Position numbers and translations under genes: made by a program
Notes under the pieces: generated by a model
What the model was told of the DNA's origin: nothing
Seen by the model: the letters and a program-made list of their open reading frames with translations, nothing else
The model's database searches: none
Assembly: GCF_002161055.1 (NCBI RefSeq)
Contig: NZ_NFLT01000003.1
Coordinates: 186,001 to 250,000 of the forward strand
Length of the DNA: 64,000 bases
From: Tyzzerella sp. An114
Lineage (GTDB): Bacteria > Bacillota > Clostridia > Lachnospirales > Anaerotignaceae
Direction of reading: 5' to 3'
Shown here: positions 21,903 through 41,427 of the stretch, in pieces
Position numbering within the stretch: position 1 is the stretch's first letter
How the letters are laid out: each line of letters begins with the position of its first letter

Positions 21903-22961
21903 TTAGTTATTAAGTTCGTCTAAAAGTTCTTTTACAGTAACGATTTTATCTATTCTGTAAGCATTTTCACCACAGAATATAAGTGAATTATCGACATCAC
22001 CTTTTACAGCACGAACAAGAGCACTTGTTATACAATAAGGTGTTTCTTTTGGATTACAATGGTCAAGACAACGATAACATTTTGTTACGTTTTCACGTTC
22101 TTTTTCTCTAAGTTTTATAAAATCATTTCTTATTGCACGTCCCGGCATACCAACAGGACTTTTTACAATAACTATATCTTCTTTTTTAGCATTTACATAT
22201 GCCATTTTATATTTTATGTCAGCATCACATTCCTCTGTTGCAACAAAACGTGTAGCCATTTGAACACCAGCACAACCAAGGCTCATATAATGGTCAATAT
22301 CACTTCTGTCATAAACACCACCTGCAAATATTACAGGTATACTTTTATTATACTTTTCTTCAAATTCTTTTACATATTCAATTATTTTTACAACTTCTTC
22401 ATCATAGTTTGAAAAATCATTTTTTTCAAGTTCTTCTGGTGAAAAACCAAGATGACCTCCAGCTTTTGGACCTTCTATAACAACAAAGTCAGAAATTGTT
22501 TTATATCTTCTATCCCACATTTTGAAAAGTACTTTTATTGCTTTTAATGATGAAACAATAGGAGCAAATTTTACATTTGTATCTTTTAATAGAGCAGGAA
22601 GTTCTATTGGAAGACCTGCACCAGAAATTATTATGTCAGCACCACCATCAATACAACATTTTATATATTCATCATAACGTCTTGAGGCACGCATTACATT
22701 GACACCTATAATGCCACCATTAGATATTCTTTTTGCTTCTTTTATGTGATATTTTAATGCTTCGAAATTTGTTTCTGCAGAATGTTCACCAAAAGATTTT
22801 TCATCTTTATATCCCGGTTGAGCTGCCGATATAATACCTATTGCTCCTTCTTTTGCAACTGCACCTGCAAGAGAAGAAAGACTTATACCAACGCCCATAC
22901 CCCCCTGAATGATTGGAACTTCGGCTTTAAGGTCGCCTATAATTAAAGGTTTAAGTTTCAT
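21903..22961 (-). CDS. FabK-like nitronate monooxygenase-family flavoprotein
   Basis: TIM-barrel FMN protein of 352 residues in the nitronate monooxygenase/FabK superfamily. It shows IIQGGMGVGIS at the N-terminus, ISGAGLP, the GPKAGGHLG phosphate region and the late GGVYDRSD and GVQMATRF segments. Near residues 290-310 it carries a Cys cluster (CYRCLDHCNPKETPYC) absent from the FabK in the adjacent operon. It diverges from fabT and has a FabT-like box between its promoter and start, which suggests a role tied to fatty acid metabolism. Whether it is a second enoyl-ACP reductase, a nitronate oxidase or something else cannot be decided from sequence. Confidence 0.8.
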   Translation of the reverse strand: MKLKPLIIGDLKAEVPIIQGGMGVGISLSSLAGAVAKEGAIGIISAAQPGYKDEKSFGEHSAETNFEALKYHIKEAKRISNGGIIGVNVMRASRRYDEYIKCCIDGGADIIISGAGLPIELPALLKDTNVKFAPIVSSLKAIKVLFKMWDRRYKTISDFVVIEGPKAGGHLGFSPEELEKNDFSNYDEEVVKIIEYVKEFEEKYNKSIPVIFAGGVYDRSDIDHYMSLGCAGVQMATRFVATEECDADIKYKMAYVNAKKEDIVIVKSPVGMPGRAIRNDFIKLREKERENVTKCYRCLDHCNPKETPYCITSALVRAVKGDVDNSLIFCGENAYRIDKIVTVKELLDELNN

Positions 22962-22981: not shown

Positions 22982-23000
22982 AGTTTTGAATATCAAAATT
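22982..23000. promoter_or_regulatory. FabT-like operator of the FabK-like gene
   Basis: TTTGA-ATA-TCAAA at 22985-22997 within AGTTTTGAATATCAAAATT. This fits the FabT palindrome known from streptococci (TTTGA-TTA-TCAAA). It sits about 6 bp downstream of the predicted start of the minus-strand transcript. Confidence 0.7.
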
Positions 23001-23012
23001 TTATCTAATAAT

Positions 23013-23041
23013 AATATAATATATATGACATGTAGTGTCAA
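23013..23041 (-). promoter_or_regulatory. Promoter of the FabK-like gene
   Basis: Read on the minus strand: TTGACA (23041-23036), 17-bp spacer, TATATT (23018-23013). Confidence 0.7.
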
Positions 23042-23113
23042 TAACTATGTTTTAAAATATATGTGTAAACCTGTTGAAATGTTGATGTTTTAGGGTTTTA
23101 AGGAAAAAAACTA

Positions 23114-23142
23114 TTGACTAGAATTGAAATATAATATATACT
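23114..23142 (+). promoter_or_regulatory. Promoter of the fabT-fab-acc operon
   Basis: TTGACT at 23114-23119, 17-bp spacer, TATACT at 23137-23142. The FabT box overlaps the -10 and the expected start point. Confidence 0.7.
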
Positions 23143-23170
23143 TTGATTGTCAAAATATTTGATAAACAAA
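23140..23170. promoter_or_regulatory. FabT-like operator(s) of the fatty acid operon
   Basis: ACTTTGATTGTCAAAAT at 23140-23156 contains TTTGA-TTG-TCAAA, one base from the known FabT palindrome. A second, weaker copy (TTTGA-TAA-ACAAA, 23158-23170) follows directly, so two dimers could bind in tandem. Confidence 0.75.
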
Positions 23171-23669: not shown

Positions 23670-24641
23670 ATGTATTCTTCTAGAATCGTGTATACCGGAA
23701 GTTATGTTCCGGAAAGAATTGTTACAAATGATGAACTTTCTAAAATAGTTGATACAAATGACGAATGGATTTCTTCAAGAACAGGCATTAAAAAACGTCA
23801 TGTTTCTGAGGGGGAAAATGCGTCAGACCTTGCAACAAAAACTGCAAATGCTATAATAGAAAGAGGGAATATAAATCCTCTTGATATAGAGCTTATTATA
23901 GTTGCAACTGTATCATCTGATTATTCTACTCCTTCAACAGCTTGTGTTGTTCAGGCTAACATAGGAGCTAAAAACGCAGTTGCTTTTGACATTACAGCAG
24001 CTTGCTCTGGATTTGTCTATGCTTTAAGTGTAGCAGACAAATTTATTAAAACTGGAGTATATAAAAATGTAATGGTAATTGGTACAGAGGTACTTTCAAA
24101 ACTTACCGATTGGACAGACAGAACAACTTGTGTTCTTTTTGGTGACGGCTCTGCTGGTGCTTTTGTTGAGAGAAGTGAAAGTGGCGGAATTATTGCTGAA
24201 GACATTGGAAGTGACGGTAAAAAAGGCATGTCACTTACTGTAAACCACATACTTGCTTCTAATGTGTTTAATGGAATGGAAAAAGAAGCTCCTTCATGTA
24301 TAAATATGGACGGAAAAGCTGTTTTCCAGTTTGCAACAAGACAAGTGCCTAAGAGTATCAACAAAATAATTGAAGAAACAAAAATAAGCATAGATGACAT
24401 AAAATATGTTGTTCCTCATCAGGCAAATTACAGAATTATCGAAGTAATTTCAAGAAAAACAGGAATACCTATGGATAAATTTTACATAAATATAGAGAAC
24501 TATGCTAATACATCATCAGCAACTATTCCTATTGCTCTTGATGAAATGGTTCAGGCTGGTATGCTTGAAAGAGGAGATAAGATACTTATTACAGGTTTCG
24601 GCGGTGGTCTTACTTGGGGAAGTATGCTTATAGAATGGTAA
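23670..24641 (+). CDS. fabH: FabH, beta-ketoacyl-ACP synthase III
   Basis: Starts fatty acid synthesis by condensing acetyl- or branched acyl-CoA with malonyl-ACP. 323 residues. The Cys-His-Asn triad is visible: Cys in ITAACSGFVYAL near residue 112, His in VPHQANYRI, and Asn in NYANTSSATIP. It is the first biosynthetic gene behind fabT, preceded by AAAGGAGAT. Confidence 0.95.
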   Translation: MYSSRIVYTGSYVPERIVTNDELSKIVDTNDEWISSRTGIKKRHVSEGENASDLATKTANAIIERGNINPLDIELIIVATVSSDYSTPSTACVVQANIGAKNAVAFDITAACSGFVYALSVADKFIKTGVYKNVMVIGTEVLSKLTDWTDRTTCVLFGDGSAGAFVERSESGGIIAEDIGSDGKKGMSLTVNHILASNVFNGMEKEAPSCINMDGKAVFQFATRQVPKSINKIIEETKISIDDIKYVVPHQANYRIIEVISRKTGIPMDKFYINIENYANTSSATIPIALDEMVQAGMLERGDKILITGFGGGLTWGSMLIEW

Positions 24642-24706
24642 AAGGCAGCACTTATAATTAATCATAAAAATAAAAATAATTATTCAAATTTTAGGAGGAA
24701 TTTAAA

Positions 24707-24934
24707 ATGGTATTTGAGAAAATTAGAGAAATTATTGCAGAACAGACAGGTAAAGATGTAGAAGAAATAACAATGGAAACAAGCGTTAAAGAAGACCTTG
24801 AGGCTGATTCATTAGACCTTTTCCAGATTATCAATGATATTGAAGATGAATTTGATGTTAAAATTGAAGATGCTGAAGCTATCAAAACAGTTGCTGACGC
24901 TGTAAAATTTGTTGAAGAAAACATGGATAAATAA
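24707..24934 (+). CDS. acpP: AcpP, acyl carrier protein
   Basis: Small acidic carrier of 75 residues. The 4'-phosphopantetheine attachment Ser is in EADSLDLFQ near residue 36. A strong TAGGAGG ribosome site precedes it, as expected for an abundant protein. It carries the growing acyl chain for all fab enzymes encoded here and its acylated form is the likely FabT corepressor. Confidence 0.95.
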
Positions 24935-24964
24935 TTTTTTACTTGAAGGACAAAGGTGGAAAAA

Positions 24965-25906
24965 ATGTACGCAGATATTTGTGAAATGCTTGGAATAAAA
25001 TATCCTATATTCCAGGGTGCTATGGCTTGGATTTCAGATGCAGAGCTTGTTTCTGCTGTATCAAATGCAGGCGGTCTTGGAGTTTTGGCAACAGGTCATC
25101 TTGACGGTGAAGGCTGTCGTGCCGAAATAAGAAGGATAAAAGAAATGACAGACAAACCTTTTGCTGTAAACGTTATGCTTTTATCAGCTTTCGTTGAAGA
25201 TATTGTAAAGGTTATCTGTGAGGAGAAAGTTCCTGTTGTAACAACAGGTGCAGGTTCACCTCTTAAATATATGCCACAGTTCAAGGAAGCAGGCGTTAAA
25301 GTTATACCTGTTGTTCCTTCTGTTGCCATGGCAAAGAAATTTGTAAAAGACGGTGCTGATGCTGTTATAGCTGAAGGTACTGAATCTGGCGGTCATGTTG
25401 GTAAAACAACAACTATGGCTCTTGTGCCACAGGTTGTTGATGCTGTAAATGTTCCTGTTATTGCTGCTGGCGGTATTGCTGACGGTAGAGGAATGGCTGC
25501 TGCTACAATGCTTGGTGCTTCAGGCTTCCAGCTTGGAACACGTTTCCTTGTTGCTAAAGAATGTACAGTACATGAAAAATACAAGGAAAAAATATTAAAA
25601 GCAAAAGATATTGATACAACTACAACAGGTCAGTCCACAGGACACCCTGTAAGAGTTTTAAGAAATAAACTTGCAAGAGCTTTTGAGGCTCTTGAGAAAA
25701 ACAATGCTTCTCAGGAAGAGCTTGACGCTCTTGGAAGAGGTGCTTTAAGAAGAGCTGTTAAAGAGGGAGATGTTGATAACGGTTCTGTTATGTCAGGACA
25801 GATTGCAGGTCTCGTTTCTAAAGAACAGACAGCTAAAGAAATGATTGAAGAAATGTACAATGAGTACAAAGAAATCATGGCTAAAGCACCAGGATTAATA
25901 AGATAA
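24965..25906 (+). CDS. fabK: FabK, enoyl-ACP reductase II
   Basis: FMN-dependent trans-2-enoyl-ACP reductase, the last step of each elongation cycle and the triclosan-insensitive alternative to FabI. About 313 residues. Motifs: FQGAMAWISDAELVSAVSNAGGLG at the start, TTGAGSP, EGTESGGHVG, and AAGGIADGRGMAA with the phosphate loop LGTRF. ATG 24965 with GGTGG 5 bp upstream is preferred, but GTG 24956 after GAAGGA is also possible. No fabI is present. Confidence 0.92.
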   Translation: MYADICEMLGIKYPIFQGAMAWISDAELVSAVSNAGGLGVLATGHLDGEGCRAEIRRIKEMTDKPFAVNVMLLSAFVEDIVKVICEEKVPVVTTGAGSPLKYMPQFKEAGVKVIPVVPSVAMAKKFVKDGADAVIAEGTESGGHVGKTTTMALVPQVVDAVNVPVIAAGGIADGRGMAAATMLGASGFQLGTRFLVAKECTVHEKYKEKILKAKDIDTTTTGQSTGHPVRVLRNKLARAFEALEKNNASQEELDALGRGALRRAVKEGDVDNGSVMSGQIAGLVSKEQTAKEMIEEMYNEYKEIMAKAPGLIR

Positions 25907-25987
25907 TTTTTTTTGAAAAGACAAAACGGACGCAGACTTTATGTTTGCGTTCCGCTTTGTTGTATATGGATAAATAGGTGGTAGAAT

Positions 25988-26917
25988 ATGAAAACAGTTT
26001 TTATGTTCAGTGGACAGGGTGCCCAGTATATGGGTATGGGTAAAGAATTATACGAAAATTTTGAATGTGCAAAAGAGATATTTGACAGAGCTGATAAAGC
26101 ACTTGGTTTTTCTATAAAAGACATGTGCTTTGAGAATGAAGAAGAACTTAATAAAACAGAAAATACACAGCCAGCTATACTTACAGTTAGTATTGCAGCA
26201 TTAAAAGTTCTTGAGGAGAAGGGTATAAAAGCAGATTATGTGGCAGGTTTAAGCCTTGGAGAGTATTCTGCTCATGTTGCTAGTGGCTCAATGGACTTTG
26301 ATGAGGCTGTTGCTCTCGTTAAAAAGAGAGGTAAATACATGACAGAGGCTGTTCCTTTTGGTGTTGGTGGTATGTATGCCATTATGGGACTTGACAGAGA
26401 CACAGTTTTAGAATGTTGTAAAGAGGCTTCTGATATAGGATATGTTGCCCCTGCAAACTATAATGCTCCAGGACAGATTGTTATTGCCGGAATTGCTGAG
26501 GCTGTTGAAAAAGCTGCTTCAATAGCAAAAGAAAAAGGTGCAAAACTTACAGTTAAACTTAATGTAAGTGGACCTTTCCACACAGAACTTTTAAAACCAG
26601 CTTCTGATAAGCTTGCAGAGGAACTTAAAAATATAAACTTTAAAAATATGGAAATACCTGTAATTACAAATGTTACAGGAGATATAATTGAAAATAACGA
26701 GGATATTGCTCCTCTTTTAATAAAACAGGTTATGAGCCCTGTAAAATGGGAGGACACTATACAGAAATTATCTGAACTTGGTGTTGACACATTTATAGAA
26801 ATAGGGCCAGGAAAAGCTCTTAGTGGTTTTGTAAAGAGAACTCTTAAGGGTGTTACTATTCTCAATGTGGAAGATATGAAATCCCTTGAGAAAACATTGG
26901 CAAAACTCAATGGTTAA
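25988..26917 (+). CDS. fabD: FabD, malonyl-CoA:ACP transacylase
   Basis: Loads malonyl groups onto ACP. 309 residues. The nucleophilic Ser is in AGLSLGEYSAHV near residue 90; the N-terminal FSGQGAQYMGMGKEL is characteristic and the His of the catalytic pair is in the SGPFHTELL segment. It follows fabK by 81 bp and precedes fabG by 20 bp. Confidence 0.95.
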   Translation: MKTVFMFSGQGAQYMGMGKELYENFECAKEIFDRADKALGFSIKDMCFENEEELNKTENTQPAILTVSIAALKVLEEKGIKADYVAGLSLGEYSAHVASGSMDFDEAVALVKKRGKYMTEAVPFGVGGMYAIMGLDRDTVLECCKEASDIGYVAPANYNAPGQIVIAGIAEAVEKAASIAKEKGAKLTVKLNVSGPFHTELLKPASDKLAEELKNINFKNMEIPVITNVTGDIIENNEDIAPLLIKQVMSPVKWEDTIQKLSELGVDTFIEIGPGKALSGFVKRTLKGVTILNVEDMKSLEKTLAKLNG

Positions 26918-26937
26918 TTTTTTAAAGGAGAAATTTT

Positions 26938-27669
26938 ATGCTTAAAAATAAAACAGTTATCGTAACAGGTGCTGCAAAGGGTATAGGTAGAGCTATCGCT
27001 TTACGTTTTGCAAAAGAAGGCTGTAATATTGTTTTAAATTACAGAAGTACTGTTTCTGATGAGCTTATTGATGAAATAAAGAGCTATGGTGTTGAATGTA
27101 TGCCATATAAAGCTGATGTAAGTGTTTACAGTGAGGCTGAAGCTCTTATTAAAGATGCTAAAAAACAGTTTGGTTCTGTTGATGTTCTTGTAAACAATGC
27201 AGGTATCACAAGAGATATGCTTCTTATGAGAATGTCAGAGGAAGAATTTGACTCTGTTATAAATACAAACCTTAAAGGTGCATTTAATACTATAAGACAC
27301 GTTTCATCTGTTATGCTTAAACAGAGAAGCGGTGCTATTATAAACCTTTCATCTGTTGTTGGTCTTATGGGAAATATAGGTCAGGCTAACTATGCTGCAT
27401 CAAAAGCTGGTGTAATCGGTCTTACAAAATCAGCAGCAAGAGAGCTTGCAGCAAGAGGAATAACTTGCAATGCTATTGCTCCTGGATTTATTGAAACAGA
27501 TATGACAGCTGTTCTTAAAGAGGAGACTAAAGAGGCAATGCTTAATACAATACCTCTTAAAAAATTCGGTTCTGCTGAAGATGTTGCAGAGGCCGTTGTA
27601 TTCCTTGCAAAAAACAGATATATCACAGGCCAAGTTCTCAATGTAGACGGCGGAATGGTAATGAACTGA
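26938..27669 (+). CDS. fabG: FabG, 3-oxoacyl-ACP reductase
   Basis: NADPH-dependent short-chain dehydrogenase of 243 residues. The cofactor loop is [12 protein letters not shown], followed by the NNAG motif, the catalytic Ser in NLSSVVG and the Tyr-x3-Lys pair in YAASKAGV. The C-terminal [12 protein letters not shown] is typical. Its place between fabD and fabF supports the fatty acid role rather than another SDR activity. Confidence 0.94.
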
Positions 27670-27691
27670 GAGAGGACGGTAGTTTGATTTT

Positions 27692-28933
27692 ATGGATAGA
27701 AGAGTAGTTATTACCGGTATGGGTGCTATAACACCTGTTGGAAATAATGTTGATGATTTCTGGAACAGCATTAAAAATGGTGTTAGCGGTATAGATTTTA
27801 TAAAAAGCTTTGATACAACAGATTTTAAAGTAAAGATTGCTGCTGAAGTTAAGGATTTTGACCCTACTTTATACGTTCAGAAAAAAGAGCTTAAAAGAAA
27901 TGACCTTGTTTCTATTTATGGTATTGCAGCTGCAACACAGGCTGTTGAGGACTCTAAACTTAATCTTGATGAGATAGATAAAGACCGTTTTGGTGTTATT
28001 GTTGGTTCTGGTATCGGCGGTATGATTACAATACAGGAGCAGGTTGGAAAACTTTTTGCAAAAGGTCCTTCAAAAGTTTCTCCTCTTTTCATACCTATGG
28101 CGATTGGTAACATGGTAGCCGGAAATATTGCAATAAAATTTGGTGCTAAAGGTGTTTGTGAGAATATAGTTACAGCTTGTGCAACAGGTACAAACTGTAT
28201 AGGTGACGCTTTCAGAAGTATCAAACATGGATATTCTGATATTATAATCGCCGGAGGAGCTGAGGCTGCTATATCTGAAATTGGTGTTGCAGGATTTACA
28301 AATCTTACAGCTCTTTCAACAAATCCAGACCCTAAAAAGGCTTGTAGACCTTTTGACAAAAACAGAGATGGTTTTGTTATGGGTGACGGTTCAGGTGTTG
28401 TTATACTTGAGGAACTTGAACACGCTCTTAAAAGAGATGCTAAAATATATGGTGAGGTTGTTGGATATGGTGCAACAGGTGATGCATATCATATGACAGC
28501 TCCTTCTCCAGACGGAAGTGGTGCTGGTAAAGCTATGAAACTTGCTATGGAAGAAGCAGGAATTAAACCTTCTGATGTTTCATATATAAATGCTCATGGA
28601 ACAAGTACACCAGCAAATGAAACTTCTGAAATTAAAGCTATAAACTATGCTTTAGGTGATGAAGCTCCTAATGTTCCTGTAAGCTCAACAAAATCAATGA
28701 CAGGACACCTTCTTGGTGCTGCCGGTGCAATAGAGGCTATTGCTTGTATTAAAGCCCTTGAAGATGGATTTATACCACCTACATTAAATGTTGATGAAAA
28801 AGATGAAAGCTGTAACTTTGACTGTGTTCCTTACGTAGGTAGAAGTGCAGACCTTAAATATGCATTATCAAATTCTCTTGGTTTCGGAGGACATAATGCT
28901 GTTCTCTGTTTCAAGAAATGGGAGGGTAAATAA
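27692..28933 (+). CDS. fabF: FabF, beta-ketoacyl-ACP synthase II
   Basis: Elongating condensing enzyme of 413 residues. The Cys-His-His triad is visible: Cys in VTACATGTNCIG near residue 165, His in NAHGTSTPANE, and His in KSMTGHLLGAAG. No fabB or fabA/fabM-type gene is seen next to it. The stop overlaps the accB start by 1 bp. Confidence 0.95.
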   Translation: MDRRVVITGMGAITPVGNNVDDFWNSIKNGVSGIDFIKSFDTTDFKVKIAAEVKDFDPTLYVQKKELKRNDLVSIYGIAAATQAVEDSKLNLDEIDKDRFGVIVGSGIGGMITIQEQVGKLFAKGPSKVSPLFIPMAIGNMVAGNIAIKFGAKGVCENIVTACATGTNCIGDAFRSIKHGYSDIIIAGGAEAAISEIGVAGFTNLTALSTNPDPKKACRPFDKNRDGFVMGDGSGVVILEELEHALKRDAKIYGEVVGYGATGDAYHMTAPSPDGSGAGKAMKLAMEEAGIKPSDVSYINAHGTSTPANETSEIKAINYALGDEAPNVPVSSTKSMTGHLLGAAGAIEAIACIKALEDGFIPPTLNVDEKDESCNFDCVPYVGRSADLKYALSNSLGFGGHNAVLCFKKWEGK

Positions 28934-29433
28934 TGAATTATAATGATATAAAAGAACTTATCGGTATAATAGATAATTCTAAACTTACAAATTTTGAATT
29001 GTCTATGGATAATGTTAATGTTAAAATGAGTAAGACAGGAAAAGAGTTTGCTCCTTCAGATTTAGTTCCACCAGTTGCTCCTGCTCCACAGATGCCAGTA
29101 GCTCCACAGCCAACTGCTCCTGTTGTAAATTCTACACCTTCAACAGTAGCTCCACAGGGTGAAACTGTAAAAGAGGAGGAGAAAGCTCCTGAAATTTCAG
29201 GAAACATTGTAAAATCTCCTATCGTTGGAACATTCTATTCAAGCACAAGCCCAGGAAAACCTCCTATTGTTTCAAAGGGAGATAAAGTTTCAAAAGGTGA
29301 TGTTCTTTGTATTGTTGAGGCAATGAAGGTTATGAACGAAATAACAAGCGATTTTGACGGTGAAGTTTTAGAAATATTCGTTGAGAATGGTCAGCTTGTA
29401 GAGTTTGGTGAACCTCTTTTTGCTATTGGTTAA
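28933..29433 (+). CDS. accB: AccB, biotin carboxyl carrier protein
   Basis: Carrier subunit of acetyl-CoA carboxylase, 166 residues. A Pro/Ala-rich linker (about residues 45-80) precedes the C-terminal biotinyl domain. The biotinylated Lys is in [10 protein letters not shown]. Biotin would be attached by BirA (not in the window) and supplied through BioY. Confidence 0.95.
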
Positions 29434-29446
29434 GGAGAATTTAATT

Positions 29447-29869
29447 ATGATGGATATAAATGAAATTATGAAAATAATACCTCACAGATACCCATTCCTT
29501 CTCGTTGATAGAATTGATGAGGTTGTTGAGGGTGAAAGAGTAGTTGCAACAAAAAATGTTACAATGAATGAACCTTTCTTTCAGGGACATTTTCCACAGA
29601 TGCCTGTAATGCCAGGAGTTCTTATAATTGAGGCTATGGCTCAGGCTGGTGCTGTTGCAGTATTGGCAAAAGATGAGTTTAAAGGAAAAATTGCTTTCCT
29701 TGCAGCTGTTGACAAAGCTAAATTTAGAAGAAATGTAGTTCCAGGAGATACACTTCGTCTTGAAGTTGAGCTTTTAAAACTCAAGAAAAATGCCGGTGTT
29801 GCAAAAGGTGTTGCTTATGTTGGAGACAAAAAAGCAGCAGAAGCTGAAATCACATTTATGATTGGATAA
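29447..29869 (+). CDS. fabZ: FabZ, 3-hydroxyacyl-ACP dehydratase
   Basis: Hot-dog fold dehydratase of about 140 residues. The catalytic His lies in [14 protein letters not shown] and the Glu in [13 protein letters not shown]-terminal [12 protein letters not shown] is diagnostic. ATG 29447 is supported by AAGGAG 9 bp upstream; the ATG at 29450 is an alternative. It sits between accB and accC, an order common in Clostridia and streptococci. Confidence 0.95.
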
Positions 29870-29896
29870 TTTCCAAAAAATTTTGGAGGTGTTTTT

Positions 29897-31246
29897 GTGA
29901 TTGAAAGAATTTTGATAGCTAACAGAGGCGAAATAGCAGTAAGAATAATAAGAGCCTGTCGTGAAATGGGAATACATACAATAGCTGTGTTCTCAGAACC
30001 GGACAGAGATGCTTTACATACTCAGCTTGCTGATGAAGCTGTATGTATAGGTCCTGCAAGAGGTACAGACAGTTACCTTAATATGCAGAATATTATAAGT
30101 GCCGCTGTTTTGAAAAAAGCTCAGGCAATCCACCCGGGCTTTGGATTTCTTGCAGAAAATTCCACATTTGCAACAATGTGCGAGGAATGTAATATAAAAT
30201 TTATAGGCCCAGACCCAAAAACAATAGATGAAATGGGAAACAAATCAAATGCAAGACAGCTTATGATAAAAGCTAATGTTCCTGTTATACCGGGAAGTGA
30301 CGGTGTTGTAAATAGCATTGATGAGGCTTATGAAGTAGCTGAGAGACTTGGTTATCCTGTTATTGTAAAGGCTTCTGCCGGCGGTGGCGGAAAGGGTATA
30401 CGTATAGTAAGAGAAAAAGGTGAACTTGCAAAAGCTTTTGAAGCAGCTCAGAGTGAAACTATTGCAGCATTCGGTGATGATGCCATGTATATGGAAAAAC
30501 TTATTGAGAATGCTCGTCATATAGAAGTACAGGTTCTCGGAGATAACTTCGGAAATGTTGTTCATCTTGGTGAGAGAGACTGCTCAATGCAGAGAAGAAA
30601 TCAAAAAGTTCTTGAGGAAGCTCCTTCTCCTGCTTTATCTGAAGATATACGTACAAAAATGGGTGAGGCTGCTATTCGCGCAGCAAAAATTGTTGGATAT
30701 AAGAGTGCTGGAACAATAGAATTTTTATATGAGGAAAGCTCACAGAAATTCTATTTTATGGAGATGAACACTCGTATTCAGGTTGAACACCCTGTAACAG
30801 AAATGATTACAGGAATTGACATTGTAAAAGAACAGATAAAAATTGCGTCAAACGAACCTCTTTCATTCACTCAGGAAGATGTTGTGTTTAAAGGTCATGC
30901 AATAGAATGTCGTATAAATGCGGAAAATCCTTCAAGAAATTTCGCTCCTTCTCCAGGAAAAATAGATTATCTTCTTATGCCGGGAGGCGGAATGGGACTT
31001 CGTGTAGATAGTGCTGTTTATGCAGGCTATACTATACCACCATATTATGATTCAATGATTGCTAAGGTTATAACATATGGTTCTGACAGAAACGAGGCAA
31101 TCGCAAAAATGAAAAGAGCCCTTGAGGAATTTGTTATACATGGAATAGATACAAATATAGAATTCCAAGAGGCAATACTTAATAATAAACTCTATTTGGA
31201 AGGTAAATTTGATACTTCTTTTATAGGCAGAGAAATTATAAAATAA
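29897..31246 (+). CDS. accC: AccC, biotin carboxylase
   Basis: ATP-grasp subunit of acetyl-CoA carboxylase, 449 residues. It shows RILIANRGEIAVRI at the N-terminus, the glycine-rich KASAGGGGKGIR loop near residue 160, the EMNTRIQVEHPVTE metal and bicarbonate site, and the C-terminal AECRINAE-type segment. GTG start after GGAGG with a 7-bp spacer. It is closely related to the N-terminal third of the pyruvate carboxylase encoded at 35210. Confidence 0.95.
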   Translation: MIERILIANRGEIAVRIIRACREMGIHTIAVFSEPDRDALHTQLADEAVCIGPARGTDSYLNMQNIISAAVLKKAQAIHPGFGFLAENSTFATMCEECNIKFIGPDPKTIDEMGNKSNARQLMIKANVPVIPGSDGVVNSIDEAYEVAERLGYPVIVKASAGGGGKGIRIVREKGELAKAFEAAQSETIAAFGDDAMYMEKLIENARHIEVQVLGDNFGNVVHLGERDCSMQRRNQKVLEEAPSPALSEDIRTKMGEAAIRAAKIVGYKSAGTIEFLYEESSQKFYFMEMNTRIQVEHPVTEMITGIDIVKEQIKIASNEPLSFTQEDVVFKGHAIECRINAENPSRNFAPSPGKIDYLLMPGGGMGLRVDSAVYAGYTIPPYYDSMIAKVITYGSDRNEAIAKMKRALEEFVIHGIDTNIEFQEAILNNKLYLEGKFDTSFIGREIIK

Positions 31247-31278
31247 AAAGCCGAAAAAAAGTAAGGGGGGCATAGCCT

Positions 31279-32151
31279 TTGAATTTATTCAAAAAGAAGA
31301 ATTATATTAAAATACAGACTGTTCAGGCAACACATAACAATGAAGACATAGAGTCTCCAAGTATTCCTGATGGTCTTTGGTTAAAATGTAAATATTGTAA
31401 AAAAACCATTTATAATAAGGATATCGGTGAATATAAAATATGCCCTCATTGCGGCGGACATTTCAGAATAGGAGCTATGGAGAGAATAGCCCTTTTAACT
31501 GATGAAAATTCATTTGAGGAAATTAATGGCAATATGTGTGCTAAAAATCCTATGGGATATCCTGATTATGATGTTACAATCAAAAAGGCTCAAGAGAAAT
31601 CCGGTCTTAAAGATGGTGTTGTGACAGGTCTTTGTACAATAAATGGCTTTAAAACTGTTATTGCTGTTATGGATAGTAACTTTATGATGGGTTCAATGGG
31701 TTCTGTTGTAGGTGAAAAAGTTACAAGAGCTGTTGAAAAAGCAACAGAATTAAAACTTCCTATCATTATATTTACAACATCAGGTGGTGCAAGAATGCAG
31801 GAGGGTATTATATCTCTTATGCAGATGGCAAAAGTAAGTGCTGCACTTTCAAAACATAATGATGCAGGACTTTTATATATAACTGTTCTTACAGACCCTA
31901 CAACTGGTGGTGTAAGTGCAAGTTTTGGTATGCTTGGTGATATTATACTTGCTGAACCTAAAACTCTTATAGGTTTTGCTGGTCAAAGAGTTATTGAGGG
32001 AACTATAAATGAAAAACTTCCTGAAGGTTTCCAGACAGCAGAATTCCAGCTTGAACATGGTTTTGTTGATAAAATAGTAAGACGTGACGAGCTTAAAGAT
32101 ACTTTAGGAAAAATACTTAAAATTCATTGTTGTGAAGGAGGCGGTTTTTAA
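31279..32151 (+). CDS. accD: AccD, acetyl-CoA carboxylase carboxyltransferase beta subunit
   Basis: Beta half of the carboxyltransferase, 290 residues. A four-Cys zinc ribbon (CKYCKK ... CPHCGGH, about residues 33-55) precedes the crotonase-like domain, with [10 protein letters not shown] near the middle and [13 protein letters not shown] start behind GGGGGG. The stop overlaps the accA start by 1 bp, consistent with equimolar AccA2D2 assembly. Confidence 0.95.
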
Positions 32152-32948
32152 TGAATAGAGCTATGAAATCCGTTAATGCTTCAAGAATGATTTCAAGACC
32201 TACAACTCTTGAATTTATAGCTGAAATTTTTGATGATTTTATAGAGTTCCACGGAGACCGTCTTTTCAAAGATGACAAATCAATAGTTGGTGGTATTGCC
32301 ACTCTTGATGGGAAACCTGTTACTGTTGTAGGTGTTCAGAAAGGTCACACTATTGAGGATAATTTGGCTAGAAACTTTGGTTCTCCACACCCTGAAGGAT
32401 ATCGTAAAGCTTTAAGACTTATGAAACAGGCTGAAAAATTTAACAGACCTGTAATTACATTTGTAAATACATCAGGTGCCTACTGTGGTATTGGTGCAGA
32501 GGAAAGAGGTCAGGGAGAAGCTATTGCAAGAAATCTTATTGAAATGGCTGACCTTAAAGTGCCTATTATATGTATATTTATAGGTGAAGGTGGAAGCGGT
32601 GGAGCTTTAGCTCTTGCTGTTGCCGATGAAGTTTGGATGCTTGAAAATGGTATGTATGCCGTTCTTTCTCCTGAAGGATTTGCTAGTATACTTTGGAGAG
32701 ACCCTACTCGTGTTGAGGAAGCGGCTGAACTTATGAAAATAACTGCTGAAGACCTTATTAAGAATAATGTTATTGATAAAATCATTCCTGAACCGGAAGA
32801 AGGACTTCACAACAACCTTAAATATACAACAGATATACTTAAAAAAGAACTTATTGATAAAATTAAAGTTTTGTCAGAAAAAAATGTTGATACACTTCTT
32901 GCTGAAAGATACAACCGTTTTAGACAGTTTGGAGAGTATAGTGAATAA
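32151..32948 (+). CDS. accA: AccA, acetyl-CoA carboxylase carboxyltransferase alpha subunit
   Basis: Alpha half of the carboxyltransferase, 265 residues. Family segments: [42 protein letters not shown], and the oxyanion [11 protein letters not shown]. It is a compact form, shorter at the N-terminus than the E. coli protein, as usual in Firmicutes. It ends the fabT-fab-acc operon and is followed by a strong terminator. Confidence 0.95.
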
Positions 32949-40012: not shown

Positions 40013-40591
40013 TTAGAAATATTTGTCCAAAATTTTCTCTGCAATACGTTTTTCTGTGTTTGCTTGAATGGCAACTAAAAGAACGGTTAAAATAAGAACA
40101 ACTTCTTCTTTGTTTTTAAGAGAAGCTATATCTTCTCGCTCAAAAAATTTTTTCTGAACTTCAACATTTATAAGTATATTATCTTTGTTGAATTTTTGCA
40201 GAGCGGTAAAATAACGGTATACAGTTTCTAAAGGCTCACATCTCTCACTGCCCTTTATTGTATTTGTCACAGGAGCAAGAAGCCTTTTTATATCATTTAT
40301 GGAAAGTATTGATTTAAGATGATATATGATAACCAAAAGCATTAAATGATTGCGGGTATATTTCTTTTTTATAGGCGAAGGAAAAAGTTTCGCTTTCGCA
40401 TAATTATTAATCATTGTTTTTGTCAAAACCTTGTCGTCAGTATAACGTTTGTAAGACTTAAGGCTTTCCTCCATAAATGTGGTCACCTGGTCCATATATA
40501 AATCTATATTTGGAATATCGGTTATTTCTATGGTATCCGTTGATGTAACCTCTCCGATTACCCCTTGCAGTTTTTCTATAAAACTGTCCAT
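40013..40591 (-). CDS. DUF1836-domain protein
   Basis: Cytoplasmic protein of about 192 residues, mostly helical, recognised as DUF1836. The central KVLTKTMINNYAKAKLFPSPIKKKYTRNHL segment resembles a MerR-like winged helix, and a hydrophobic helix (LMLLVIIYHLKSIL) follows. A regulatory DNA-binding role is plausible but untested. The start ATG at 40591 follows AAGGTG by about 5 bp; an upstream ATG at 40609 is possible. It diverges from the hemolysin III homologue across 180 bp. Confidence 0.75.
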   Translation of the reverse strand: MDSFIEKLQGVIGEVTSTDTIEITDIPNIDLYMDQVTTFMEESLKSYKRYTDDKVLTKTMINNYAKAKLFPSPIKKKYTRNHLMLLVIIYHLKSILSINDIKRLLAPVTNTIKGSERCEPLETVYRYFTALQKFNKDNILINVEVQKKFFEREDIASLKNKEEVVLILTVLLVAIQANTEKRIAEKILDKYF

Positions 40592-40692
40592 TTCATCACC
40601 TTGCTTCATAATATAGTATTAACAAAAATATTATATAGCAATTTTATGTTGTTATCAACATATTTCAAAAAAAATATATTTATATATACGTA

Positions 40693-40721
40693 TTGCTTTT
40701 ATTTAATATAGATGATACAAT
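40693..40721 (+). promoter_or_regulatory. Promoter of the hemolysin III gene
   Basis: TTGCTT at 40693-40698 and an extended -10 TGATACAAT (TACAAT 40716-40721) with a 17-bp spacer. Confidence 0.6.
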
Positions 40722-40730
40722 ATCTATATT
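40705..40730. promoter_or_regulatory. Inverted repeat straddling the -10 of the hemolysin III gene
   Basis: AATATAGAT, 8-nt spacer, ATCTATATT: a perfect 9-bp inverted repeat centred on the -10, a typical repressor position. The divergent DUF1836 protein is one candidate regulator (inference). Confidence 0.5.
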
Positions 40731-40770
40731 ATAATAAGTAGTTTTTAAAACTATATAAGGAGGAATTAAT

Positions 40771-41427
40771 ATGAGTGAAATTATAGAGAAAAAAGTAAAA
40801 GACCCTATAAGTGCGTTTACACATTTTTTAGGATTTTTAATGTCTATACCGGTTACAATTACTCTTGTATATAAATCATTGGAGGATGGAAATTTTGTAG
40901 CTTCTTTTGCATTCTTAATTTTTGGTGTTTCTTTAATGTTACTTTATGGTGCAAGTACAATTTATCACACTGTAAAGACTGATGAGAGACACACAGCAAT
41001 TTTAAGAAGAATAGACCACATAATGATATTTGTTCTTATTGCAGGAACATATACACCTGTGTGTCTTGTACCTTTAAGAGGAAAATGGGGTTATACACTT
41101 TTGGCTATTGTTTGGGGTATTGCTTTTTTAGGCATATTTTTAAAGATATTTTGGCTTAATGCTCCAAGATTTCTCTCAACAGCAATTTATGTAGCTATGG
41201 GTTGGCTTGTAATGATAGCATTTATGCCTCTTGAAAAAGCTTTACCATTGGGAGGAATAATACTTCTTGCTTTAGGCGGTGTAACTTATACAGTTGGTGC
41301 TATAATATATGCCTTTAAAAGTAAGAGATTACAGTTTAAATATGTCAATTTCCACGATATATTCCATTTGTTTGTAATGGGAGGAAGTTTCTTTCATATA
41401 GTTTTTATGTATGTATATATTTTGTGA
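40771..41427 (+). CDS. Hemolysin III / PAQR-family membrane protein
   Basis: Integral membrane protein of 218 residues with about seven helices, in the bacterial hemolysin III (YqfA, PAQR-related) family. Conserved metal-site residues are visible: Ser/His in GASTIYHTVK, Asp-His in RRIDHIMIF and the C-terminal HDIFHLFVMGGSFFH. Despite the name, haemolytic activity is rarely shown; related proteins influence membrane lipid composition or act as hydrolases. GGAGGA ribosome site. Confidence 0.88.
   Translation: MSEIIEKKVKDPISAFTHFLGFLMSIPVTITLVYKSLEDGNFVASFAFLIFGVSLMLLYGASTIYHTVKTDERHTAILRRIDHIMIFVLIAGTYTPVCLVPLRGKWGYTLLAIVWGIAFLGIFLKIFWLNAPRFLSTAIYVAMGWLVMIAFMPLEKALPLGGIILLALGGVTYTVGAIIYAFKSKRLQFKYVNFHDIFHLFVMGGSFFHIVFMYVYIL

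What the first reader, a model, noticed from the sequence alone, without database searches (positions are those of the whole stretch)
22982..23170. FabT-like boxes at two divergent promoters link a FabK paralogue to the fatty acid operon
TTTGA-ATA-TCAAA lies at the start of the minus-strand FabK-like transcript, and TTTGA-TTG-TCAAA (with a weaker adjacent copy) overlaps the fabT promoter. Both match the FabT palindrome known from streptococci. Finding one site on each side of a 226-bp intergenic region suggests that a nitronate monooxygenase-family protein is part of the FabT regulon, which gives a clue to its role.
Basis: partly seen in the sequence, partly recalled or inferred. Interest (0 to 1): 0.58.

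Follow-up and report, generated by a model that had tools for sequence, protein, structure and literature searches.

The report
FabT- and DUF1836-linked clostridial FabX promoter
The gene taken for a FabK copy looks like FabX, an enzyme that puts the double bond into membrane fatty acids without FabA, and its promoter carries two conserved operators, one for the known regulator FabT and one that points to an uncharacterised protein family (DUF1836) as a second membrane-lipid regulator.

Summary
The boxes are real: TTTGAATATCAAA (22985-22997) and TTTGATTGTCAAA (23142-23154) are the only exact copies in 64 kb. The motif alone is weak evidence (10 genome sites, reversed control 13). Comparison makes the case: exact boxes lie within 120 bp of 34 of 81 separately transcribed orthologues and 0 of 41 operon-internal ones, about 0.07 expected. 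All 20 genomes whose stand-alone gene has a box (up to 1 mismatch) encode FabT; 16 of 30 without a box do. The 'FabK paralogue' is FabX-type: best sequence and structure matches are H. pylori FabX, with catalytic His and four cluster cysteines conserved. This genome shows no FabA, no FabM-type hydratase and one FabZ, so FabX is the best candidate for the unidentified clostridial unsaturated fatty acid enzyme. Its only other window copy (40738-40754) is in the promoter of trhA, divergent from a DUF1836 gene. It recurs at 25 of 81 fabX, 20 of 30 trhA and 14 of 30 DUF1836 promoters; controls 0-1. DUF1836 has a MerR-like fold and is proposed as second regulator. All regulation is inferred from sequence; nothing was assayed.

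The parts
21903..22961 (-). fabX-like gene (NMO family, 352 aa; C295, C298, C302, C310 and H170 conserved)
   Evidence: best PDB sequence match H. pylori FabX 279 bits, FabK 93 bits; Foldseek FabX TM 0.86-0.92, FabK at most 0.74; residues invariant in 42 aligned sequences
22985..22997 (.). FabT box at the fabX promoter, TTTGAATATCAAA
   Evidence: conserved at orthologous promoters
23013..23041 (-). fabX promoter, TTGACA-17-TATATT (11 of 12 consensus positions)
23032..23048 (.). second operator RTAGT-N7-ACTAY (GTAGTGTCAATAACTAT on the + strand), over the fabX -35
23114..23142 (+). fabT operon promoter, TTGACT-17-TATACT
23142..23154 (.). FabT box at the fabT promoter, TTTGATTGTCAAA
23158..23170 (.). 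weaker adjacent FabT-like copy, TTTGATAAACAAA (1 mismatch)
   Evidence: tandem boxes recur 16 bp apart in relatives such as L066, L069, L133, L139
23188..23643 (+). fabT, MarR-family regulator
   Evidence: NF050133 188 bits, cut-off 200; best PDB match S. pneumoniae FabT 6jbx 130 bits, next 41
23670..32948 (+). [quoted passage not shown]
   Evidence: ORFs; fabH, fabK and fabZ by model, the others named from the translations and used as queries
40013..40609 (-). DUF1836 gene, proposed regulator that recognises RTAGT-N7-ACTAY
   Evidence: PF08876 125 bits; VIA-align 2 top rows are MerR-family regulators
40738..40754 (.). RTAGT-N7-ACTAY operator, GTAGTTTTTAAAACTAT, in the trhA promoter
40771..41427 (+). 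trhA (PAQR / haemolysin-III family membrane homeostasis protein)
   Evidence: NF011669 220 bits, cut-off 80; PF03006 174 bits

Best explanation
The minus-strand gene encodes a FabX-type FMN/[4Fe-4S] enzyme that makes the cis-3-decenoyl-ACP branch intermediate of unsaturated fatty acid synthesis in this FabA/FabM/FabN-less anaerobe. Its promoter is under double repression. FabT, presumably loaded with long-chain acyl-ACP, binds 22985-22997 just downstream of the start point and the matching sites at fabT, so that the saturated operon and the unsaturated branch are shut down together when acyl-ACP accumulates. A second regulator binds RTAGT-N7-ACTAY over the fabX -35 and in the trhA promoter; the best candidate is the DUF1836 protein encoded next to trhA, which would adjust double-bond supply and membrane homeostasis apart from total synthesis. 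Shown: sequences, positions, conservation, homology, predicted folds. Inferred: catalysis, binding, sign of regulation, ligands, identity of the second regulator. Component estimates: FabX-type enzyme 0.85, FabT control 0.85, second operator real 0.93, DUF1836 binds it 0.7.
For: FabX identity: with residues from PMC8626469. No rival route in this genome: FabA 0 over cut-off, ECH_1 0, one FabZ here and in each of the 53 of 58 family genomes with a match. FAS-II linkage: of 122 loci, fabX is divergent from fabT/fabH in 25, first in the fab operon in 6, inside or at the end of it in 41. FabT box: 34 of 81 against 0 of 41; co-occurrence with FabT 20 of 20 against 16 of 30, Fisher p 2e-4. Second operator: 25 of 81 fabX promoters against 0 of 41, 27 hits in 853,643 bases of which 25 are at fabX, DUF1836 promoters 14 of 30, trhA promoters 20 of 27 in DUF1836-encoding genomes and 0 of 3 without it. 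DUF1836 next to trhA in 12 of 30 genomes with both and beside trhA-fabX in L125 and fabX in L126. MerR-like fold.
Against: No binding or enzyme data. E. faecalis FabT does not bind its putative acpB site (PMC9083066), so a palindrome does not prove binding. The genome-wide FabT motif count is at chance. 13 of 25 divergent loci lack an exact box near fabX. Genomes G029, G031 and G032 have no FabT hit yet keep an exact (L011) or near box on the fabH side. H. pylori FabX needs oxygen as electron acceptor, which an anaerobe lacks. One ACP-contact residue (T130) is not conserved; cysteine spacing differs. L007 and L023 carry the second operator without a DUF1836 hit (drafts 94% and 90% complete), and DUF1836 is nearly as common in genomes without the motif at fabX (28 of 36) as with it (22 of 24). 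Foldseek gave DUF1836 no match at E<=0.001.
Confidence: 0.66

Rival explanations
1. FabT controls only its own operon; the fabX-side palindrome is a chance match in AT-rich DNA.
For: Genome-wide count equals the control; 13 of 25 divergent relatives lack an exact box near fabX.
Against: 34 of 81 promoters against about 0.07 in shuffles and 0 of 41 operon-internal genes; boxes at stand-alone genes occur only with FabT.
Confidence: 0.08
2. The protein is a detoxifying nitronate monooxygenase or an accessory enoyl-ACP reductase rather than an unsaturated fatty acid enzyme.
For: Member of the NMO Pfam family; F. nucleatum FabX overexpression raised the MIC of a FabK inhibitor from 0.8 uninduced to 3.1 ug/mL induced, empty vector 0.4 (PMC11091888), so some reductase-like effect is possible.
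Against: FabX is the closest solved relative by sequence and fold; cluster cysteines are invariant in 42 aligned sequences; a true FabK lies in the operon; gene context is FAS-II.
Confidence: 0.1
3. The enzyme works only as a trans-2/cis-3 isomerase (FabM-like), taking trans-2-decenoyl-ACP from FabZ, with no net oxidation. This is a variant of the best explanation, not an exclusion of it.
For: No oxygen as acceptor in an anaerobe; FabZ supplies trans-2-enoyl-ACP; no redox partner beside fabX in the window.
Against: The [4Fe-4S] ligands are kept, which suggests electron transfer still matters.
Confidence: 0.4
4. RTAGT-N7-ACTAY is read by a regulator other than DUF1836, for example an unlinked TetR- or MarR-type protein.
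For: DUF1836 presence hardly separates genomes with and without the motif at fabX (22 of 24 against 28 of 36); L007 and L023 have the motif without a DUF1836 hit.
Against: Motif copies at DUF1836's own promoter, sometimes paired with one at divergent trhA (L152, L159, L165, L166, L168); 0 of 3 trhA promoters without DUF1836 have it; MerR-like fold.
Confidence: 0.25

Closest known systems
Helicobacter pylori FabX (PDB 7e1q, 9lt5; PMC8626469)
   Same: TIM-barrel NMO flavoprotein fold (TM 0.91-0.92 to the best three entries, 42% identity), catalytic His, FMN residues N99, E175, Q240, T243, four C-terminal cysteines, ACP-contact R164
   Different: Cysteine spacing CX2CX3CX7C instead of CX3CX3CX11C; T130 not kept; encoded beside FabT and FabK in an anaerobe where oxygen cannot be the acceptor
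Streptococcus pneumoniae FabT (PDB 6jbx)
   Same: MarR regulator at the head of the fab operon, palindromic box in its own promoter
   Different: In pneumococcus FabT is reported to repress most FAS-II genes except fabM (PMC8265628), though PMC8406281 disagrees; here the unsaturated-branch gene has its own box
Enterococcus faecalis FabT regulon (PMC9083066)
   Same: FabT sites also at an unsaturated-branch gene (fabI/fabO promoter)
   Different: That branch uses FabN/FabO, not FabX; no second operator was seen in the passages read
Neisseria gonorrhoeae UfaA
   Same: [quoted passage not shown] that it is an NMO-family protein and its spread in anaerobes lacking FabA are recalled from the 2011 paper, which is not held
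   Different: Sequence not compared here; no FabT control is known to me
FabR-type regulators of unsaturated fatty acid genes in proteobacteria (recalled)
   Same: As recalled, E. coli FabR sites occur at fabA, fabB and yqfA/trhA, so a trhA-type gene shares a regulon with unsaturated fatty acid genes
   Different: FabR is TetR-type with another operator; the candidate here is a MerR-like DUF1836 protein. The recalled source is not held

Membership tests
FabX | overall NMO/FabX fold, closer to FabX than to FabK | tested here: met
   279 against 93 bits; TM 0.86-0.92 against at most 0.74
FabX | four [4Fe-4S] cysteines in the C-terminal subdomain | tested here: met
   C295, C298, C302, C310 invariant in 42 aligned sequences; FabX ligands C300, C304, C308, C320; spacing differs
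FabX | catalytic His182 and FMN-binding side chains N99, E175, Q240, T243 | tested here: met
   H170, N88, E163, Q234, T237 align with them
FabX | ACP-contact residues R164 and T130 | tested here: inconclusive
   R164 aligns with R152; T130 aligns with I119, which varies
FabX | decanoyl-ACP dehydrogenase / trans-2 to cis-3 isomerase activity | not testable with these tools
   needs enzyme assay
FabK | score above the curated FabK cut-off | tested here: not met
   133 bits against 453.1
FabT | NF050133 curated cut-off of 200 bits | tested here: not met
   188 bits. The cut-off is strict: none of the 50 and 40 genomes searched passes it, nor does the Lactococcus lactis control, so I call the protein FabT-like and rest the assignment on the next row and on context
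FabT | closest solved relative is FabT | tested here: met
   6jbx 130 bits, next 41
FabT | binds TTTGANNNTCAAA, enhanced by acyl-ACP | not testable with these tools
   sites present and conserved; binding not assayed
MerR superfamily (DUF1836) | MerR-type winged helix-turn-helix | tested here: inconclusive
   VIA-align 2 top rows PbrR691 Z 8.6, 3gpv Z 8.3 (rmsd 1.9 over 68 aa), GlnR-DNA 4r4e Z 8.2; Foldseek none at E<=0.001; no PDB sequence relative

The most novel reading that the evidence does not exclude
DUF1836 proteins are a previously uncharacterised family of MerR-like, autoregulated transcription factors that read RTAGT-N7-ACTAY and govern a small membrane-homeostasis regulon (fabX, trhA, DUF1836) in Clostridia; together with FabT, or with FapR instead in lineages that lack both, they control an oxygen-independent FabX that is the unidentified clostridial unsaturated fatty acid enzyme.
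Probability: 0.6. Interest if true: 0.78.

Novelty: new variant of a known kind. Interest (0 to 1): 0.62.

Why it matters
A 2009 study concluded that clostridia make the cis double bond with a 'novel and unknown enzyme' (PMC2700279). The gene context, operators and absence of rivals point to FabX, which makes the question directly testable with one deletion. The second operator ties fabX to trhA and to a domain of unknown function, giving a concrete function hypothesis for DUF1836, found in 50 of the 60 clostridial genomes searched.

Tried and rejected
Genome-wide FabT motif search as proof: rejected, the count equals its control. Further FabT regulon members in this genome: the other 8 exact sites are in reading frames or beside unrelated genes. 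A dedicated second FabZ (FabN) as the unsaturated fatty acid enzyme: rejected for this family, one FabZ match per genome. A short palindrome TGACA-N5-TGTCA noticed by eye at the fabX promoter was dropped in favour of RTAGT-N7-ACTAY, which overlaps it and is conserved. Other strict hits of the second motif in this genome lie inside reading frames or away from a gene start. Whole-model Foldseek for DUF1836 gave no match at E<=0.001.

Limits: start codons of neighbours were assigned by script; L154 and L163 were mis-assigned and left out of alignment A3, L143, L149 and L155 were left out as well, but all 30 DUF1836 loci were kept in the promoter counts. Class D (alone) means no recognised fab gene within the fetched flanks (1.5 to 5 kb). 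9 of 131 fabX loci were dropped as near-duplicates or too short.

Full report
WHAT IS THERE. The two FabT-like palindromes and the weaker third copy are at the stated places. They are the only two exact copies in the window, but the motif is not enriched in this genome: 10 sites against 13 for the reversed control. Two in a 226-bp intergenic region is unlikely at that rate (about 3e-7), and both lie immediately downstream of a good promoter. Of the other eight exact sites in the genome none marks a lipid gene.

WHICH GENE. The minus-strand protein is not a FabK. It scores 133 bits against the FabK model (cut-off 453), while the gene at 24956 in the operon scores 492. Its closest solved relatives are H. 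pylori FabX structures (279 bits; FabK 93 bits). A confident model (pLDDT 94.6, pTM 0.93) matches the FabX entries at TM 0.86-0.92 and FabK at 0.74 or less. The paper on H. pylori FabX (PMC8626469; introduction and passages read) gives C300, C304, C308, C320 as [4Fe-4S] ligands and H182 as the key active-site histidine; the counterparts C295, C298, C302, C310 and H170 are invariant in 42 aligned sequences, with a different cysteine spacing. FabX makes cis-3-decenoyl-ACP, the entry to unsaturated fatty acids. This genome has no FabA over cut-off, no enoyl-CoA hydratase family protein and hence no FabM, and a single FabZ; across the family 53 of 58 genomes have exactly one FabZ match and 5 have none. 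Zhu et al. 2009 (PMC2700279, abstract and passages) concluded that clostridia need a novel, unknown enzyme for the cis double bond. FabX fills the gap. The idea that such NMO proteins serve anaerobes is not mine: UfaA of Neisseria (cited in PMC4549310) and a FabX in Fusobacterium (PMC11091888) are known, and the FabX paper counts homologues in 1650 species, mostly anaerobes.

IS THE FABT LINK REAL. Homologues were found in 37 of 58 family genomes and 195 of 392 order genomes; 131 loci were read, 9 dropped as near-duplicates or too short. In the remaining 122, fabX is divergent from fabT/fabH (25), leads the fab operon (6), lies in or at the end of the fab/acc operon (41), or has no recognised fab neighbour (50). 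Exact boxes within 120 bp of its start: 12 of 25, 5 of 6, 0 of 41, 17 of 50; shuffles average 0.02, 0.01, 0.01 and 0.04, and other palindromes give 0 or 1. The box often abuts the -10 as in TATACTTTGATTATCAAAGTA. In the 50 stand-alone genomes, all 20 with a box (up to one mismatch) encode FabT at 100 bits or more, against 16 of 30 without (p 2e-4). Four box-less genomes without a strong FabT hit (L058, L068, L072, L097) encode FapR instead, three over the cut-off, and the Romboutsia promoter (L072) has a FapR-like site (FapR consensus recalled). Against this: 13 of 25 divergent loci have no exact box near fabX, and three genomes of one genus without a FabT hit keep an exact or near box on the fabH side. 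A precedent for FabT at an unsaturated-branch gene is fabI/fabO of E. faecalis; the same paper shows that a putative site (acpB) is not bound (PMC9083066, passages).

THE SECOND OPERATOR. Promoters without a FabT box shared another inverted repeat. As RTAGT-N7-ACTAY it occurs within 250 bp of fabX in 14 of 25 divergent, 0 of 6 operon-leading, 0 of 41 operon-internal and 11 of 50 stand-alone loci; five control patterns give 0-1; of 27 hits in 853,643 bases 25 are these fabX promoters. In the window there are two exact copies, 0.29 expected: 23032-23048 over the fabX -35, and 40738-40754 in the promoter of trhA, whose divergent neighbour is a DUF1836 protein. Elsewhere trhA or DUF1836 lie beside fabX (L041, L063, L125, L126). 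DUF1836 is present in 50 of 60 genomes and sits next to trhA in 12 of 30 genomes that have both (counted from the tables). The motif is upstream of 14 of 30 DUF1836 genes and of 20 of 30 trhA genes: 9 of 12 loci from genomes with DUF1836-adjacent trhA (by contig coordinates the three without it are second copies on other contigs), 11 of 15 with DUF1836 elsewhere, 0 of 3 without DUF1836; controls 0-1. The pattern was found on the fabX promoters, so its counts there are partly by construction; the trhA and DUF1836 promoters are an independent test. The DUF1836 model (pLDDT 90) matches MerR-family regulators best in VIA-align 2 (PbrR691, 3gpv, GlnR-DNA, Z 8.2-8.6), at the edge of what that tool calls meaningful; Foldseek alone found nothing significant. 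I therefore propose DUF1836 as the regulator; the weak point is that its presence hardly discriminates genomes with and without the motif at fabX (22 of 24 against 28 of 36).

HOW IT PROBABLY WORKS. FabT with acyl-ACP represses both divergent transcripts at end-product excess, so saturated and unsaturated arms fall together. The second repressor, bound over the fabX -35 and next to the trhA -10, would set the unsaturated share. The signs and ligands are inference. Open chemistry: H. pylori FabX hands electrons to oxygen; in an anaerobe either another acceptor is used or only the isomerase step matters.

NOVELTY. FabX, FabT and TrhA are known kinds; the two-operator wiring and the DUF1836 assignment are, as far as my ten searches show, not in the papers I saw, but no search was made on DUF1836 itself. 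That the organism is an anaerobe of the Clostridia is inferred from its relatives: a named genome of its family is Tyzzerella sp. UBA1042 (L051 has the contig length and place of L028).

Noticed in passing
window 40013-41427: DUF1836 gene divergent from trhA with a 17-bp palindrome in between; became the second half of the finding.
   Followed up: yes
L072, fabX promoter (about -35): FapR-like site TTAGTACCAGGTAATAA upstream of fabX in Romboutsia sedimentorum, a genome with FapR and without a strong FabT hit or FabT box; fabX seems wired to whichever FAS-II regulator the lineage uses.
   Followed up: partly
L006, L011, L012 (genomes G032, G031, G029): FabT gone by model search, fabH directly divergent from fabX, yet exact or near FabT boxes remain on the fabH side.
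   Followed up: partly
L048-L137, class C loci (41): In many Lachnospiraceae fabX is the last gene after accA, sometimes followed by a fabT-like gene, with no operator of its own.
   Followed up: partly
L019-L030 (own family, genus g6): Stand-alone fabX promoters of this genus share a conserved GATGTAGTTT...TTGACAGATNATATGGTATATATTAT block with neither full operator, while trhA of G022 and G027 keeps the full RTAGT-N7-ACTAY.
   Followed up: no
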